From a virus: a stretch of DNA of 36,342 nt. The stretch is from positions 1-36,342 of IMG/VR virus record IMGVR_UViG_3300021961_000284. One strand, 5' to 3'. The position numbers were made by a program, and so were the translations under genes. The notes beneath the pieces are model-generated. The model made no database searches. It had not been told where the DNA came from and saw only the letters and a program-made list of their open reading frames with translations. This document shows positions 1,420 through 33,895 of the stretch, in pieces. Numbering within the stretch: position 1 is the stretch's first letter; each line of letters opens with the position of its first letter.

Positions 1420-3672
1420 TTACCCAGCTGAATTTCGTCGGCGGTAGGCTTTAACGCCATCTTTTCGATATTTCGTTTTACGCTGATCCATGTCCAGCAA
1501 ATTGGCTTTAACTAGGCTATCGAGGCAGGCTTGCACGTCTGACTGCCGTGCTTTTCTGATTTTATTACAGATCACGCCAAACGTCATGTAATCGTCAAAA
1601 CCGATCAGGTTCAAAAGCTTAAACCGCAGGCTGTCGGCTGGCGCTGATTTTTCACGATCATTCGCTGTTACCAAAACTGCCTTGGCGTCTATATCTCGGC
1701 GGACCAAGGCCGCAGCCCAATCCACATGCTCGACAGTGCGCAAGCCAGACGGTGCTGCCAGAATGAAAGATACTTTCAGGACCAACTCGAAAGCGCCAAG
1801 CGCCAGCGATCCAAGCCCGTTCTGCGCGGCGTATGCTTCCGCCATGTCCTGAAATTCGTCGCTGACCTGTTCCAGCCGCTCGATAGCCTCCGGGCTGGAT
1901 GGGATTCTTATTGGCTCGCCGTAATATTCAAGCCGTTCGTCTTCCGTCATATCATATTCGCCGCCGGTATAAAGCGCGGCTAATGTCGCAGCCATGGTTT
2001 TCTGGATCGGGTTTTTGCTGAAGCCTTTTTTGAGCCGCGGTACCGGATCAGTTTCACGAAATACCAATGCGCGACCCACGAAGCCGTTTGCTGCCGACTG
2101 GAAATCCAGCAGCGTGTCGAACGTCTCCGGCGTTGTGAACCCGGCAATGCTTAGAAATGGCTTTTCGATGCCATCATCGATCTTTTCCAACTGGGATTTA
2201 ATCCGCTCTGCCCGCCGCTCAACCGGCCTGCCATCGTCCAGCATTTTTTGCACCGCAGCATATTCGGAATTGAGCGCTTTGCGAATTTCGTCCTTTAGGT
2301 CGCCTGAAATCAGGAAATAAGCATCGGCCTTGGAATAGACCGACATCAGGATCGCGATCACGCCTTCGAGATATGCTGCACCGCCGCGAGCGGATGCGTT
2401 TTTCAGCTTTTGCAGCAGCAGCCCGAACTCATCGAGAATATACATGCAGGACTGATGCCGGATGAGATTGCGCACGACTTCCTGTTCTGACTTGATAGCG
2501 CCGTGCGTTGCTTTGTGAATACCGGCCGCGACATGCAGATCACGGATAGCCTGCTGAATAGGCTCTTTGCCGGTGCGCGGATCAGCCACGAAAAACGAAA
2601 ACAGATTGCTAGTCGCCTGATAATCGTCCCGGTATTTCAGCCCTATGATATTGCCGACCGCCGTTAATGCTGCGCCAACTGCCAGATTTTCGCGTGGCCT
2701 GCGAGACTGGGAATTGATCCATTCGCAAACCTGACCGACAAAACCTGGAGGCCGCAGCAAATCAACTTCGATTTTTCCAGTTTCTGGAATTTCAAATTTA
2801 TCGCTAGGCTCGAACGTCACACTTTGTTGCCATCCGTTGTTTTCGGCATGGTGGACAAGCGTACCCAGCGTCACCGGATTTACCGATTTACCAAACGAAT
2901 GCCAGCGGCGTTCCAGATTGTCTTTCCCGGGATATTTTCCGCCACGGGCTGACCAATCATCCCAGACGGCAAATGCTGTGCCGCCGCTCGCCTGATGACA
3001 AGCCATTCCGCATCTAATCCACAGCTCATGCTCGCAGTCTGGATTGATAACCGCCAGCATCCCAGCCAGATCGGAATGCGAAACGTCCATATATGTTCCT
3101 GCGAATTCGCTGCGGTGCAACTCCGGCCTTTTCAGGATTTCCAGCAATTCCTGCGGCGCGTCGTCTATATCGTCAACGGAGCCATATTCGAGCGAATATT
3201 TTTTTCCTGATGAATGAACCGATCCCGGCCCTACAACGTAGCCGCTCGATTTGAAGTCAATGCCGGGATAGTCGGCATGATGCTGGAGCAGAGCCATACC
3301 AGAAGGCGCCCGAAAATACATATGCCGCGAGCCGCCACCGGAACCTGTGGCGACAACCAGCCCGCATTTTTCGATGGCTGGTATATCAGATCGCAGCCGC
3401 TCGAAAGACGCTACACCGCTATTTCGGGCGTCAACGTCAATCACAAGCAGATCACGGATCAGCACTCCATAACCAGTCTTGAATTGTTCAGCTTGTTCCA
3501 TGGCGTCAATCTGTTCAGCCGCCCAGATCGGCGTATGCTGCCAGTTAGACGCCACCGGATGCTTTCCAGCACCATTGCAGTGCTCATTGCCACATGCGCA
3601 GCCGCCACCCTTGCGTATCGGCCACAAACCGAAAACGCGATGGCCTCCCTCCCAGAATTCTTTGTACATCAT
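1420..3672 (-). CDS. Prim-pol / PriCT / ATPase-like phage replication protein
   Basis: 750 residues. Residues 1-180 are a bifunctional primase-polymerase (AEP/prim-pol) domain: the metal-binding DVD at 79-81, SGGGSRH with H117, and GIDFKSSG at 137-144 are visible, and an N-terminal CxCxxxxC cluster lies near residue 25. Residues about 195-282 resemble a PriCT-2 helical domain. Residues 305-600 resemble the P-loop part of DUF3987-type replication proteins. The Walker A-like motif reads DPRTGKEP (364-371), with glutamate where Ser/Thr is usual, and LDEFG (413-417) could be Walker B. The last 70 residues look like a basic winged helix. The role is probably initiation or priming of phage DNA synthesis. 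It overlaps the upstream HTH gene by an ATGA. Two adjacent ATGs (3672, 3669) are possible starts after GGAGG. Confidence 0.85.
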   Translation of the reverse strand: MMYKEFWEGGHRVFGLWPIRKGGGCACGNEHCNGAGKHPVASNWQHTPIWAAEQIDAMEQAEQFKTGYGVLIRDLLVIDVDARNSGVASFERLRSDIPAIEKCGLVVATGSGGGSRHMYFRAPSGMALLQHHADYPGIDFKSSGYVVGPGSVHSSGKKYSLEYGSVDDIDDAPQELLEILKRPELHRSEFAGTYMDVSHSDLAGMLAVINPDCEHELWIRCGMACHQASGGTAFAVWDDWSARGGKYPGKDNLERRWHSFGKSVNPVTLGTLVHHAENNGWQQSVTFEPSDKFEIPETGKIEVDLLRPPGFVGQVCEWINSQSRRPRENLAVGAALTAVGNIIGLKYRDDYQATSNLFSFFVADPRTGKEPIQQAIRDLHVAAGIHKATHGAIKSEQEVVRNLIRHQSCMYILDEFGLLLQKLKNASARGGAAYLEGVIAILMSVYSKADAYFLISGDLKDEIRKALNSEYAAVQKMLDDGRPVERRAERIKSQLEKIDDGIEKPFLSIAGFTTPETFDTLLDFQSAANGFVGRALVFRETDPVPRLKKGFSKNPIQKTMAATLAALYTGGEYDMTEDERLEYYGEPIRIPSSPEAIERLEQVSDEFQDMAEAYAAQNGLGSLALGAFELVLKVSFILAAPSGLRTVEHVDWAAALVRRDIDAKAVLVTANDREKSAPADSLRFKLLNLIGFDDYMTFGVICNKIRKARQSDVQACLDSLVKANLLDMDQRKTKYRKDGVKAYRRRNSAG

Positions 3673-8872: not shown

Positions 8873-9139
8873 ATGGACCCGATTGAAACATTAAAAGAGG
8901 CAATAAATATACTTGCGGAGCGAGGCGAAGAATATGGCGAAACGCTATTTTGTTTTAATCGCATTTCAAGACTTGCATCAATAATGCTAGGACGTGAATT
9001 AACCGAATATGATATTGCAATAATCATGGTTGCAGTAAAAATGGGAAGATTGGAGGAAGGTAGGAACAAAAGAGACACATATATCGACGCAATAAACTAT
9101 CTGGCAATCGCAACAGAATTTGTAAACTTGGGAGAGTGA
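8873..9139 (+). CDS. DUF6378-like phage protein
   Basis: 88 residues. The pattern ILAERGEEYGETLFCFNRISRLASIML, then TEYDIAIIMVAVKMGRLEEG, then KRDTYIDAINYLAIATE, matches my memory of the DUF6378 family (typically R..YG...ENF.RIA...D.ALMM..LK.AR...D...D...Y.A...). It occurs in many phages near nucleotide or replication genes and has an all-alpha, MazG/NTP-pyrophosphohydrolase-like look. A role in nucleotide housekeeping is possible but not shown. The ribosome site is weak (AGGAAAAA). It is followed one base later by the DnaA-like gene. Confidence 0.65.
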   Translation: MDPIETLKEAINILAERGEEYGETLFCFNRISRLASIMLGRELTEYDIAIIMVAVKMGRLEEGRNKRDTYIDAINYLAIATEFVNLGE

Positions 9140-30093: not shown

Positions 30094-31476
30094 TCACAAG
30101 AGACGAATTGCCGGTGCGGCATTATTTAATAAAACATCAGATATGGCCGACATTGTGCAATCGATCATATCGTCATGGGCTGCGTTCGGAAACAATCCCG
30201 CCTCGCTCAGAAAGTCGGCCAAATGTGGCACATTGTTAAGCAATAGCACATTTCCACTTTCGATTAAAGGTGCTGCATCGAAGGCCCTAGTCACCTTGTC
30301 TATGTTGCGTTTTATACCAACCATCGGGATGCCTTCGCGCTTTAGCTTTTGAATCAGCCCAGTGCCACTGACTTTATCTTCAACTTTGAAAGCCCGGAGT
30401 GTGCCTTTGTTCTCGACCGCCTTATGCTTTGCCCAGAACGCTCGCGCCATTGTTTCCAGTTCCGGTGCTTCCCATTTACCGCGAGCCATGTCGAGCATAA
30501 TAGCTTGGCCGTTTACTGTATGGCCCCAGCACTGCATCACGGAATAATCGTTCTGCTCTTTTGTCTTTTGCGCGGTATCTGCATATATCGACCGCCACAA
30601 GATGGGTGGGCTTGCATCACGCATCTGCCACCAGTGGTCTTTGAATATACCGCCGCCCAGAGGCGCTGGCTGCTGCATGTATTGACCTGCATAAACATAG
30701 CTGCTGGCACGTTCTAGGCGATCCAGCATTTCGTCGGGGAATTGCTGCGGCCAGAACGAGCTGCCGTCATCCATCCGCGCCGGGATGACTAGGTGATCCC
30801 ACTTCTCGCCAGACCCGCCATTGAGAAGCCAGCCCGATAGATCGTTTTCATGCAGGCGCTGCATGATGATAATGATCGGCCCGTCTGGTTTGTTCAGACG
30901 GCTTGCGATGGTCGATTGATACCAGTCGATCACGTTCTGCCGCATGGTTTCGGATGTGGCTTCGCCTGCCTTGTGCGGATCGTCTATGATAATTGCCCCA
31001 CCAAAGCTATTGCGCATCTTGCTGGCACCATATCCGGTTATCGTACCATCGGCACCGGTGGCATAGACAACGCCGCCTTGCCCGGTTCGGAACTCATCCT
31101 TTGCTCGGCTATCGTCTTGGATCGCGGTCCACGGGAAGATCGCCCTGTATTCATCCGATTGCATGATTGCTCGAACTTCATAGGTGTTTGATGTCGCAAG
31201 CCGCTTGGAATAGCTGGCGTGGATAAATTCGGCATCCGGGAATAGCCCCATCGACCACGCTATAAAGTTCTTAACGGCCATTTCGGTTTTACCGGATCGC
31301 GGCGGCACGTTGATGATAAGTCGATTGGTGCAGCCCAGTATAACGCGCTCAAGCGCCGCACATATTTCCTCCTGATGCCAGTTTTCCAGCATCGGGGTGC
31401 CTTTGCGTGCTTTGAATATATATCGGCTAAAATGATACAAGCGGCCCAGAAGCAGGGCTTGCTCATTCTGGTTCAC
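30094..31476 (-). CDS. Terminase large subunit
   Basis: 460 residues, start GTG at 31476. ATPase: Walker A-like VPPRSGKTEM (57-66) and Walker B IIIDDPHK (162-169, D165/D166). Nuclease (RNase H-like): D300 in SIYADTAQ, E366 in FKVEDKVSGTG and D435/D436/D439 in HDDMID. It also has the GYGASKMRNSFGG element of the phage T4/T7-like Terminase_6 group. It packages DNA through the portal encoded next. It begins directly after the stop of a secreted-protein gene. Confidence 0.93.
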   Translation of the reverse strand: MNQNEQALLLGRLYHFSRYIFKARKGTPMLENWHQEEICAALERVILGCTNRLIINVPPRSGKTEMAVKNFIAWSMGLFPDAEFIHASYSKRLATSNTYEVRAIMQSDEYRAIFPWTAIQDDSRAKDEFRTGQGGVVYATGADGTITGYGASKMRNSFGGAIIIDDPHKAGEATSETMRQNVIDWYQSTIASRLNKPDGPIIIIMQRLHENDLSGWLLNGGSGEKWDHLVIPARMDDGSSFWPQQFPDEMLDRLERASSYVYAGQYMQQPAPLGGGIFKDHWWQMRDASPPILWRSIYADTAQKTKEQNDYSVMQCWGHTVNGQAIMLDMARGKWEAPELETMARAFWAKHKAVENKGTLRAFKVEDKVSGTGLIQKLKREGIPMVGIKRNIDKVTRAFDAAPLIESGNVLLLNNVPHLADFLSEAGLFPNAAHDDMIDCTMSAISDVLLNNAAPAIRLL

Positions 31477-31845
31477 TTAACCGCCCGCCTGCTGCTGCAC
31501 AAGACAATAAGTCCTGCGCAATTCAATTTGTTTAGACACTGACAAGAATAATATTGTTCCCATTTTTTGAGGCGCCAATGGCCATTTCACAATTTTTTTG
31601 ATCGGAACAGAAACTATTTCGCCACGTTTTGCTGTCGGATGTTTCATTGGATCAGTTATCTCGACGGCAACAGCATCTTTAGATGACGCTATAACACGAG
31701 CCTTGACTGCATCACCTTCGCCGCAACAATTATATGTTGTGCCGTCAAAAAACTCTGCTTGTTTTACATCTTCAAAAAACTGCTTACGTTCATCCGCAAT
31801 TACGGGACTAAACATAAACAATAATGCAATCAGGCTATTCTTCAT
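31477..31845 (-). CDS. Secreted Cys-containing protein between TerS and TerL
   Basis: 122 residues. MKNSLIALLFMFSPVIADERK is a Sec-type signal peptide, cleavage near residue 17-18 (PVIA-DE). The mature part has FFDGTTYNCCGEGDAVKARV with two adjacent Cys (C40-C41), and a KRGEIVSVPIKKIV beta segment. I recall a family of phage proteins with 'CCGE.DA' after a signal peptide, found near head genes, of unknown role. It overlaps the TerS gene by 11 bases and ends immediately before TerL's start. A periplasmic protein among packaging genes is odd; perhaps an exclusion or lysis-timing accessory. Confidence 0.75.
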   Translation of the reverse strand: MKNSLIALLFMFSPVIADERKQFFEDVKQAEFFDGTTYNCCGEGDAVKARVIASSKDAVAVEITDPMKHPTAKRGEIVSVPIKKIVKWPLAPQKMGTILFLSVSKQIELRRTYCLVQQQAGG

Positions 31846-32200
31846 GGATTTTGCCCAGCGCGGCCAATACTGCCGCCTGTACTGGCTCCGGCTTTAGTGA
31901 GCCATCCTCGTTGGAGATGTCTATGGTTTCCCGCCATTTGGCACGAGTTTTCATCCAGAAAATCGCAGCAGCGACATTGCCTTTTTTATCCGGCGATGTT
32001 GCGATCTGAAACAGATTATTCGCGACCTGTGCGTTCAGCTTTGCCATGCCGATATCGAGTTCTGCGCGATAGTATTTCCGCAGCGTCTCGTCTGATATGC
32101 CGATGATTGCCGCAATATCGTCGTGCTTCATGCCGATGCCAGCCATCAGTGTTACCTGATTGCGGGATCGTTCGTCTGGTTCATACGCTGGCATTACCAT
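31835..32200 (-). CDS. Terminase small subunit
   Basis: 121 residues. MAGIGMKHDDIAAIIGISDETLRKYYRAEL (19-48) is a helix-turn-helix of terminase-small type, followed by LDIGMAKLNAQVANNLFQIATSPDKKGNVAAAIFWMKTRAKWRE, the usual oligomerisation helices. It recognises the packaging start on the DNA and regulates TerL. It overlaps the glycosyltransferase gene by 20 bases, and the secreted-protein gene by 11. The start is at 32200 or the third residue ATG at 32194. Confidence 0.88.
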   Translation of the reverse strand: MVMPAYEPDERSRNQVTLMAGIGMKHDDIAAIIGISDETLRKYYRAELDIGMAKLNAQVANNLFQIATSPDKKGNVAAAIFWMKTRAKWRETIDISNEDGSLKPEPVQAAVLAALGKIHEE

Positions 32201-33119
32201 ATTGCACCAATTTCATCCCATATTCATTAACCTGATCCGATATTTGCAGATCATTTTTTCGTATCAGCTTTCTATTCTTGAACGGTGTATAATCTACATG
32301 ATGATGATACCGTCCGAACTTAAATACCAGCCTTGATACATCTGGATGTACTTTAACTTGCATCTGACTTTTTGCCAATGTTCCTGTATCTGCATATTTT
32401 TCGCCGGATTTTACTGATCCTTCAGCATGATAAAATTCTGCTGTATTTCCACCTTTAATAGTTTGAGTGTTCATCTTTTCTTGCAAGAACGCATTAAACT
32501 GAACAGTACACCATCCAGCTTTTAACATATCTAATGAGATTATCGTATCTTCATTGTAACGACCGCGCCATCTAAATGATAAATCGTTTTTTATAAGATT
32601 ACATGAATATATTCGTGTGTTCATTATAAATGGCGGTATTTTGCTTCTAGCCGGGGCAAACATATGATAATTGGGTCCAGCCATAGCAATATTTTTATAA
32701 CGCAATACAAAATCTTCCATTGCCTTAAAAAATGATCCTGTTGATACTTTTACTCTTTCATTTTTATTTAATCTTCTAAACGAAAGAATATTATCATCCA
32801 TAACCCAGTGCCATTTATGTCCATTTGCAATACTATGATCCCATGCAAAATTTCTTGCCGGTCCCGGTCCAGTGCTTTTAGACAATCCTAAATTATCGCA
32901 TAATTCATACTTTTCTTTATAAGATAAATCTAACTCTATAGCCTTTGCCATTAAATTCATATCTGATATTGCTTTTATGTATTCTTTCATTTGATTTGGT
33001 TCAACAATAATACAATGTGGCACTCCCATCTTCGTTAAATATTTTGAAGTTATCATATATTCAGAGCGCCCTTTGCTCGGAATATATAATGGAAATTGAG
33101 GTTTATTTGCTTTATCCAT
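32181..33119 (-). CDS. TAGT-like glycosyltransferase (TET/JBP-associated type)
   Basis: 312 residues. Blocks are FPLYIPSKGRSE (9-20), STGPGPARNFAWDHSIANGHKWHWVMDDN (82-110, metal-binding DDN at 108-110), MAGPNYHMFAP, NTRIYSCNLIKNDLSFRWRGRYNEDT (167-192), GWCTVQFNAFLQEKMNTQT and FGRYHHHVDYTPF. These are the hallmarks I recall for the GT-A-like TAGT family (PF20691 type), described by comparative genomics as linked to base hypermodification in phages. The substrate here is unknown; no TET/JBP oxygenase or hydroxymethylase is seen. It overlaps the ParB-domain gene by 8 bases, so the two are likely coupled. It is more AT-rich than its neighbours. Glycosylation of DNA or of a virion protein are the options. 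Confidence 0.8.
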   Translation of the reverse strand: MDKANKPQFPLYIPSKGRSEYMITSKYLTKMGVPHCIIVEPNQMKEYIKAISDMNLMAKAIELDLSYKEKYELCDNLGLSKSTGPGPARNFAWDHSIANGHKWHWVMDDNILSFRRLNKNERVKVSTGSFFKAMEDFVLRYKNIAMAGPNYHMFAPARSKIPPFIMNTRIYSCNLIKNDLSFRWRGRYNEDTIISLDMLKAGWCTVQFNAFLQEKMNTQTIKGGNTAEFYHAEGSVKSGEKYADTGTLAKSQMQVKVHPDVSRLVFKFGRYHHHVDYTPFKNRKLIRKNDLQISDQVNEYGMKLVQYGNASV

Positions 33120-33765
33120 ATCGTTTTGACTCTGTATCCATTTTTTCTTGTTCTGGGAACCATATTGATTTTGTTTTATCAGTATGGCTTTGCCCTATTA
33201 TGCTAAAGAACTCTGCAACATCATCATTATTTTCAAAATGAACTATAATATGCCTAAATGATTTTTTGTCTTTTTGATCATATTCAGGCATATCTTTCCA
33301 TTCTTCTTCCGGATTAGTAATTCCTTGCTCTATATCTAATGATATATTGGCCAATTCTCCTTCCGAAAAACCAATCAGCCCCAGATCGAACCCGGCAACA
33401 TCGAGATCGCCAATCTCCACCTTCAGCAGGTCCATATCCCAGCCAGCATTAAGCGCCAGTTGGTTGTCGGCCAGAACGTAGGCTTTCTTCTGCGCCTCGC
33501 TCCAGCCGGTCGCCACCATAACCGGCACTTCGTCGATCCCCAACTTGCGAGCCGCCATAACGCGACCATGCCCTGCGATGATCTGGCTGTCCTCATCCAC
33601 CAACACTGGGCTAGTCCAGCCCCACTCCTTGATCGACGCTGCCAGTTGCGCCACTTGCTCGTCGGAATGCGTTCTGGCGTTGCGTGCATACGGGATCAGG
33701 CTATCGACTGACCGACGCTCGATCTTGTCGGCGGGCCATCCTTTTATTGCGCCAATTTTACTCAT
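33112..33765 (-). CDS. ParB/sulfiredoxin-like domain protein
   Basis: 217 residues from the ATG at 33765 (AAGG five bases upstream). The ParB N-terminal core is residues 12-110: RRSVDSLIPYARNARTHSDEQVAQLAASIKEWGW, PVLVDEDSQIIAGHGRVMAARKLG (GHGR at 65-68) and VLADNQLALNAGWD. Relatives are often fused to a DNA methyltransferase; here that part is missing, and the tail (170-217) has FRHIIVHFENNDDVAEFFSIIGQ and DKTKSIWFPEQ. That tail pattern I have seen with ParB/TAGT phage loci. The ParB fold can bind or cut nucleic acid or use nucleotides; the activity is not shown. It is coupled to the TAGT gene. Confidence 0.8.
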   Translation of the reverse strand: MSKIGAIKGWPADKIERRSVDSLIPYARNARTHSDEQVAQLAASIKEWGWTSPVLVDEDSQIIAGHGRVMAARKLGIDEVPVMVATGWSEAQKKAYVLADNQLALNAGWDMDLLKVEIGDLDVAGFDLGLIGFSEGELANISLDIEQGITNPEEEWKDMPEYDQKDKKSFRHIIVHFENNDDVAEFFSIIGQSHTDKTKSIWFPEQEKMDTESKRYG

Positions 33766-33766
33766 C

Positions 33767-33895
33767 TTAACCTTTGCAGCAAATGATTTCGGCCAAGGCC
33801 GCATATACCCCATGCGGCGGCAGAAGCGGCGTTATCTTGCACCCGCTGGTCCATACGGTGTTAATTTCGTGCAGCGGCGCATAAAAAAATACCAT
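33767..33895 (-). CDS. 42-aa hypothetical protein upstream of ParB
   Basis: 42 residues from the ATG at 33895 (MVFFYAPLHEINTVWTSGCK...), chosen because GGAGG lies eight bases upstream. The open frame extends to 34015, but the extra part has a composition of random translation and overlies two hairpins. The peptide has PLLPPHGVYAALAEIICC near its end. The stop TAA is one base before the ParB ATG (TAAGATG), so it is coupled to it. No family is recognised. Confidence 0.5.
   Translation of the reverse strand: MVFFYAPLHEINTVWTSGCKITPLLPPHGVYAALAEIICCKG

What the first reader, a model, noticed from the sequence alone, without database searches (positions are those of the whole stretch)
32181..33895. 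ParB-domain protein coupled to a TAGT-type glycosyltransferase, next to the terminase
The glycosyltransferase shows MDDN, RGRYNEDT and GPGPARNFAWDH blocks of the TET/JBP-associated family, and the ParB-like gene overlaps it by 8 bases. The TAGT family has been tied by comparative genomics to hypermodified phage DNA, but there is no visible TET/JBP oxygenase, hydroxymethylase, methyltransferase or thymidine-modifying enzyme in the window. So the acceptor is unknown: a modified base made by the host or by an unrecognised gene, or a protein. The missing methyltransferase after the ParB domain, replaced by a short TKSIWFPE-type tail, is notable.
Basis: partly seen in the sequence, partly recalled or inferred. 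Interest (0 to 1): 0.65.

Follow-up and report, generated by a model that had tools for sequence, protein, structure and literature searches.

The report
Sugar-adding enzyme with ParB adaptor
This phage carries a sugar-transferring enzyme that, in almost every relative checked, comes with one small undescribed helper domain; here the helper sits on a DNA-binding ParB protein, which suggests the phage coats its own DNA with sugar although it has none of the known genes that prepare DNA for this.

Summary
32181-33119(-) is a TAGT glycosyltransferase (PF20691, E=4e-39) and 33112-33813(-) a ParB_N protein overlapping it by 8 bases, upstream of the terminase genes. The 'TKSIWFPE tail' is not a leftover of a lost methyltransferase. 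It is an undescribed ~60-residue domain tied to this TAGT clade. A search with the tail alone found TAGT downstream in 80/80 best hits (57 ParB-tail, 23 free small proteins). In cultured T4-like and other phages it is fused to TAGT, and one metagenomic ORF fuses ParB-tail-TAGT. Across 289 loci (196 clusters at 90%), 187 of 189 assessable clusters carry it. The ParB core is a swappable carrier: 69.5% identical to the ParB of a ParB-adenine-methyltransferase fusion in the same pre-terminase slot. In the window GC3 falls from 0.70 to 0.21 inside the ParB gene, so tail+TAGT looks imported. A second TAGT clade (E. coli prophages, Lactobacillus phage, haloarchaeal virus) repeats the design with an unrelated tail. 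No thymidylate-synthase/hydroxymethylase gene occurs in 87 viral records searched (T6 control positive), so the T6 acceptor route is absent. Best reading: a ParB-delivered DNA glycosyltransferase with an unknown, non-T4-type acceptor. A protein acceptor is not excluded.

The parts
32181..33119 (-). TAGT glycosyltransferase gene (312 aa)
   Evidence: PF20691 E=4e-39; PHROG 842 E=2.5e-43; catalytic blocks invariant in 50 relatives; GC 0.34, GC3 0.25, lowest GC3 of the 39 window genes measured
33112..33765 (-). ParB-tail gene, proposed start at ATG 33765 (217 aa; the longest ORF begins at 33813)
   Evidence: ParB_N E=1.3e-7; relatives start at the equivalent Met; SD-like AAAGG at 33771-33775
33364..33726 (-). 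ParB/Srx-fold core domain (residues 30-150 of the 233-aa ORF)
   Evidence: AlphaFold2 mean pLDDT 84.3; Foldseek best hit 6sdk ParB-CDP, E=1.3e-7; up to 80% identical to relatives; 69.5% to the ParB domain of a ParB-N6_N4_Mtase fusion
33136..33318 (-). TAGT-partner ('tail') domain, EWxxMPE...TKSIWFP (residues 166-226)
   Evidence: found with TAGT in 80/80 best hits of a tail-only search; fused to TAGT in cultured phages; no convincing Pfam, PHROG or NCBIfam model for the free tails tested
33112..33119 (-). 8-base ParB/TAGT overlap (ATGGATAA), likely translational coupling
   Evidence: sequence; -8 overlap recurrent in relatives
32181..33375 (-). Probably imported AT-rich cassette (tail + TAGT); junction inside the ParB gene near 33375
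   Evidence: GC3 0.70 before and 0.21 after, likelihood ratio 53, Fisher p=6e-13 (breakpoint chosen from the data); ParB core GC 0.56, tail 0.31, TAGT 0.34
31835..32200 (-). Terminase small subunit-like protein, overlapping TAGT by 20 bases
   Evidence: PHROG 309 E=2.1e-16
30094..31476 (-). Terminase large subunit
   Evidence: Terminase_6C PF17289 E=4e-11

Best explanation
The two genes make a two-part DNA glycosylation machine. TAGT is the catalytic subunit (DD metal site, UDP-sugar donor). The tail domain is its dedicated partner. The ParB core, a CTPase-type DNA-clamp fold, carries the partner and so brings TAGT to phage DNA. The genes lie just upstream of the terminase, so the DNA would be sugared late, around packaging, and protected from restriction or CRISPR nucleases on the next infection. 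Supported by data here: TAGT identity, near-obligate tail-TAGT association, ParB as exchangeable carrier, mosaic import in this phage, absence of a hydroxymethylase in the group. Inferred: physical complex, DNA as acceptor, CTP-driven loading, protection. Unknown: the base and linkage. It is not T6 chemistry, because the phage lacks the pathway that makes hydroxymethylcytosine. The donor is probably host UDP-glucose or a derivative here; some relatives carry their own UDP-sugar genes.
For: (1) Tail-TAGT linkage: 80/80; tail present in 187 of 189 assessable 90% clusters; tail fused to TAGT in Aeh1, PTm1 and 1.124; ParB-tail-TAGT in one ORF of L289. (2) ParB as carrier: window ParB core 69.5% identical to the ParB of a ParB-adenine-methyltransferase fusion in the same slot before the terminase. 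(3) GC3 break inside ParB; L029 is 78.5% identical in the core but 46.7% in the tail. (4) A second TAGT clade (E. coli, Lactobacillus, Haloarcula, Nocardia) pairs the same kind of ParB core with a different conserved tail, and that tail is also found free before TAGT in Vibrio phage pv27. (5) TAGT of T6 acts on DNA (PMC13216743). (6) Some relatives add a UDP-glucose dehydrogenase plus an NAD epimerase/decarboxylase, or a second GT, in the same operon. (7) Thymidylate-synthase/hydroxymethylase family in 0 of 87 viral records, T6 control positive.
Against: No biochemical data. No acceptor gene is visible, and a TAGT relative, GREB1, is reported to glycosylate protein. ParB residues are not strictly kept: L020 and L027 lose the ADNK motif, and many loci do without ParB altogether. 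The TET search had no ringing control. Many records are fragments.
Confidence: 0.62

Rival explanations
1. The TAGT glycosylates a protein (for example terminase, portal or ParB itself) rather than DNA; ParB-tail is a scaffold that brings enzyme and protein substrate together on DNA.
For: No phage-encoded hydroxylated base pathway in the group; TAGT-domain GREB1 reported to O-GlcNAcylate protein; TerL directly downstream in 56 of 65 eligible ParB-type loci.
Against: The same ParB module carries DNA adenine methyltransferases in the same slot; the phage TAGT with known activity acts on DNA (T6, PMC13216743); free-tail and fused loci lie near the terminase much less often (22 of 52 and 20 of 60 in the two searches that include them).
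Confidence: 0.2
2. The acceptor is a hydroxylated or methylated base made by the host or by an unrecognised phage gene; TAGT-tail only adds the sugar, as in the TET-associated systems. (A narrower version of the DNA reading, overlapping with the best explanation.)
For: T6 TAGT needs a pre-existing glucosyl-hmC (PMC13216743); Krischvirus SAP has glucosylated cytosine with no known pathway gene (PMC13390438); C5-methylases in 4 of 43 related viral records.
Against: No gene other than the tail recurs in most loci; host contigs span Proteobacteria, Bacteroidetes, Acidobacteria and others, so one shared host modification is unlikely.
Confidence: 0.3
3. ParB is a real partition (plasmid-maintenance) protein and the TAGT is an unrelated neighbour.
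For: ParB fold with CTPase relatives.
Against: One-ORF fusion (L289), conserved overlaps, tail-TAGT linkage and clade-matched tails; 112 of 189 assessable clusters have the pair.
Confidence: 0.03

Closest known systems
T2/T6 beta-glucosyl-HMC-alpha-glucosyltransferase (TAGT, PF20691; makes gentiobiosyl-hmC)
   Same: Same Pfam family; the T6 protein scores E=3.7e-9
   Different: The T6 enzyme has no tail or ParB and sits beside the thymidylate-synthase-family gene gp42; the window group lacks that pathway
Aeh1/65/phiAS5-type T4-like Aeromonas TAGT
   Same: 45-50% identical TAGT with the same tail domain; Aeh1 GT listed as presumed DNA modifier with unknown base (PMC8056088); Aeh1 and 65 lack gene 56 and are not among the gene 42 carriers (PMC2993671)
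   Different: Tail fused to TAGT, no ParB
ParB-N6_N4 methyltransferase fusions of phages (PHROG 498)
   Same: Same ParB core (69.5% identity) and same position before the terminase
   Different: Effector is a DNA methylase in cis, not tail + TAGT
ParB + distant TAGT pairs of E. coli prophages, Lactobacillus phage jlb1 and halovirus HHTV-2
   Same: ParB then overlapping PF20691 gene, upstream of terminase
   Different: Different TAGT clade and an unrelated ParB C-terminal tail (profile comparison of the tails not significant)
Canonical ParB/Noc/KorB CTPase clamps
   Same: Fold and motif positions
   Different: No helix-turn-helix match; ENxxR-type motif reads ADNxL; C-terminus is the TAGT-partner tail

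Membership tests
TAGT glycosyltransferase (PF20691) | HMM match above curated cut-off | tested here: met
   135.1 bits vs 27.5
TAGT glycosyltransferase (PF20691) | Catalytic DD motif and RGRYNEDT block intact | tested here: met
   D108, D109, N110, R185, R187, N189, E190, D191 invariant over 50 sequences
TAGT glycosyltransferase (PF20691) | Association with TET/JBP oxygenase | tested here: inconclusive
   0 of 49 records, but no control rang
T6-type second glucosyltransferase on hmC DNA | dCMP hydroxymethylase (thymidylate-synthase family) encoded by the phage | tested here: not met
   0 in the window and 0 of 87 viral records; T6 control positive
T6-type second glucosyltransferase on hmC DNA | Sugar transfer to glucosyl-hmC in DNA | not testable with these tools
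   needs biochemistry
ParB/Srx superfamily | ParB_N domain and fold | tested here: met
   31.9 bits vs 26.3; Foldseek 6sdk E=1.3e-7
ParB partition protein (ParABS) | HTH parS-binding domain and C-terminal dimerisation domain | tested here: not met
   only ParB_N found by Pfam; matches to solved ParBs by sequence are confined to the N-terminal part; C-terminus is the tail domain
ParB partition protein (ParABS) | CTP binding and hydrolysis | not testable with these tools
   motif positions partly kept: GHGR, ADNxL
ParB partition protein (ParABS) | ParA partner and parS site | not tested
   not searched
ParB-methyltransferase modification cassette | Methyltransferase domain fused after ParB | tested here: not met
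   none in the ORF or next gene; the slot is taken by tail + TAGT

The most novel reading that the evidence does not exclude
TAGT with its tail partner is a self-sufficient DNA hypermodification enzyme that attaches sugar directly to a canonical base (no prior hydroxylation), with ParB as a CTP-driven clamp that spreads it along phage DNA; the ParB core is a general delivery module onto which phages plug different DNA-modifying effectors.
Probability: 0.22. Interest if true: 0.88.

Novelty: new variant of a known kind. Interest (0 to 1): 0.62.

Why it matters
A 2026 study notes that 288 of 753 phages with these DNA glycosyltransferase families have a solitary TAGT of undefined function (PMC13216743). 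This work gives two TAGT clades a concrete composition: a clade-specific partner domain, free, fused or carried on ParB, and no hydroxymethylase for the window's clade. It tells experimenters which second protein to co-express and that unmodified DNA should be tried as acceptor. It also reads phage ParB as a swappable carrier for DNA-modifying enzymes, and it points to a workable model: a ParB+TAGT pair matched over at least 80% of its length in 885 of 5,426 complete E. coli genomes, annotated there as 'ynaK' and 'hypothetical protein'.

Tried and rejected
Tail as a decayed methyltransferase: rejected, the tail is among the most conserved parts of the ORF and TAGT-linked. ParB as partition protein next to an unrelated GT: rejected by the fusion and clade-matched tails. 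T6-like hmC pathway: no thymidylate-synthase family gene. TET: negative but uncontrolled; a Mycobacterium phage intended as positive control is not held, and 198 genomes of the phylum of the Frankia record also gave nothing, so no claim is made. PDB sequence search for TAGT: no credible relative. Tail fold: AlphaFold2 pLDDT 84.9 but no sheet of its own; not searched further. Tail A versus tail B profiles: no significant similarity. Nucleotide search for the window's first 25 kb in cultured phages: no match. Literature for ParB+TAGT pairs: nothing found in the open library; Iyer et al. 2013 and Burke et al. 2021, recalled from memory, could not be read (for the former), so an earlier mention of the pair cannot be excluded.

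Full report
OBSERVATION. TAGT (32181-33119) is a clear PF20691 member; ParB (33112-33813) carries ParB_N; they overlap by 8 bases. The likely ParB start is 33765 rather than 33813. TerS-like and TerL genes follow.

THE TAIL IS A TAGT-PARTNER DOMAIN. TAGT alone, searched in 2.9 million viral contigs, gave 80 loci of 51-80% identity. Nearly all carry a ParB-like ORF directly upstream, with diverse portal and terminase genes around it. Cultured relatives (Aeromonas T4-likes, Vibrio Kuja/1.076/1.124/henriette, Tenacibaculum PTm1, Pectobacterium POP12) showed no ParB gene in the six neighbourhoods read. Where the gene is intact their TAGT has an N-terminal extension, and this contains the window's ParB tail (Aeh1 43% identity, E=5e-12). 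A profile of the tail alone (A3) then found at least 517 relatives. Of the 80 best, all 80 have TAGT downstream: 57 as ParB-tail and 23 as a small ORF without ParB, 75-127 aa, a few of them cut by contig ends. Some of these contigs are the same as. A second TAGT search gave about 50 free tails, 11 ParB-tails, 17 fusions and two contig-end cases. Its query included the tail, which may favour tail carriers. Bacterial genome contigs gave 52 more loci, from Proteobacteria, Bacteroidetes, Acidobacteria, Verrucomicrobia and others, and one single ORF ParB-tail-TAGT (L289). Pooled: 289 loci, 196 clusters at 90% identity; 112 ParB-tail, 58 free tail, 16 tail-TAGT fusions, 1 triple fusion, 7 at contig ends, 2 without. 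The free tails tested match no Pfam, PHROG or NCBIfam family convincingly. In the ParB alignment the tail's W172, M175, P176, F202 and P220 are invariant even where the ParB motif is lost.

PARB IS A SWAPPABLE CARRIER. AlphaFold2 and Foldseek place the core among ParB CTPases. In 50,697 phage records the ParB core has relatives in 394, many annotated as methyltransferases. A circular phage, MW202613, carries a 69.5% identical ParB core fused to N6_N4_Mtase, directly before its putative small-subunit and terminase genes. Inside the window's own ParB gene GC3 drops from 0.70 to 0.21 near 33375; ParB core GC is 0.56, tail 0.31, TAGT 0.34, TerS 0.51. The breakpoint was chosen from the data, so its p value is indicative only. 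L029 shows the same joint independently: core 78.5%, tail 46.7% identity to the window. The reading is that tail+TAGT was imported behind a resident ParB core.

A SECOND CLADE REPEATS THE DESIGN. An E. coli phage of a Rac-like prophage type (ON470590) has ParB followed, with an 8-base overlap, by a distant PF20691 protein (E=1.1e-34), then terminase. Lactobacillus phage jlb1, halovirus HHTV-2 and Nocardia phage NTR1 do the same. Their ParB tails resemble each other and not the window's. In Vibrio phage pv27 that second tail is a free 139-aa protein just before TAGT (E=1e-43). The E. coli pair is matched over at least 80% of its length in 885 of 5,426 complete genomes, annotated as ynaK pseudogene and hypothetical protein in the genome read.

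DONOR AND ACCEPTOR. Seven relatives (L060, L062-L064, L071, L072, L076) place an NAD epimerase/decarboxylase-family gene and a short UDP-glucose-dehydrogenase-like gene after TAGT, and L080 carries the first of these. Others insert a GT32-type enzyme, a class I methyltransferase-like protein or a radical SAM protein between ParB and TAGT. This fits a sugar-transfer operon whose sugar varies. For the acceptor, the thymidylate-synthase family, which includes dCMP hydroxymethylase, is absent from the window and from all 87 viral records searched, up to 334 kb long, while T6 rings for both its enzymes. Several of the large cultured phages do carry one such gene (Aeh1, Kuja, henriette, PTm1, pv27); in Aeh1 the one full-length gene is annotated td, thymidylate synthase. 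C5-methylases occur in 4 of 43. Petrov et al. do not list Aeh1 or 65 among gene 42 carriers and state that both lack gene 56 (PMC2993671). T6-type chemistry is therefore not available to the window's group. Apart from the tail, no gene recurs across most loci, so either the acceptor needs no dedicated phage enzyme or that enzyme varies.

MECHANISM AND LIMITS. Shown by sequence: family identities, near-obligate tail, exchangeable ParB, import event, missing hydroxymethylase. Inferred: tail binds TAGT; ParB loads the complex on DNA, perhaps with CTP; DNA is the acceptor; the effect is nuclease protection. DNA is favoured because the same ParB carries DNA methylases and because T6 TAGT works on DNA. 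Protein acceptors remain possible because the TAGT-domain protein GREB1 is reported to glycosylate protein. Many records are fragments, the hit lists are the best-scoring ones, and the triple fusion is a single MAG contig. TET absence is not established.

VERDICT. New variant of a known kind: the enzyme family is known, while the partner domain, its near-obligate linkage and the ParB-carrier arrangement were not found described in the open literature available here.

Noticed in passing
L312:3028-4702; L320:6001-7675: E. coli Rac-like prophages carry an intact ParB + TAGT pair; in the genome read it is annotated as ynaK pseudogene and hypothetical protein. The query region is matched over at least 80% in 885 of 5,426 complete genomes.
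   Followed up: partly
L060, L062, L063, L064, L071, L072, L076, downstream of TAGT: Phage-encoded short (254-270 aa) UDP-glucose dehydrogenase-like protein plus an NAD epimerase/decarboxylase-family protein, just before TerS/TerL.
   Followed up: partly
L039, L040, L042, L057 (GT32-type); L002, L020, L027, L080 (methyltransferase-like); L142 (radical SAM): Different enzymes inserted between ParB-tail and TAGT, suggesting elaborated or varied glycan or base chemistry.
   Followed up: partly
L084:8581-11269 (Vibrio phage Kuja): Two tandem tail-TAGT genes, each with what looks like a second degenerate tail-like repeat at the N-terminus.
   Followed up: no
L256:8368-10900: ParB-tail followed by two TAGT genes in a Verrucomicrobiaceae MAG contig.
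   Followed up: no
L085/L175 (Aeromonas phage Aeh1): Aeh1 keeps denA (annotated as an endonuclease initiating degradation of cytosine-containing DNA) but its one full-length thymidylate-synthase-family gene is annotated td, and it is not listed as a gene 42 carrier; its tail-TAGT might be what marks its own cytosines.
   Followed up: partly
window 1420-3672 and 8873-9139: Bifunctional primase/polymerase (Prim-Pol + PriCT_2) and a DUF6378 protein in the replication-side region.
   Followed up: no
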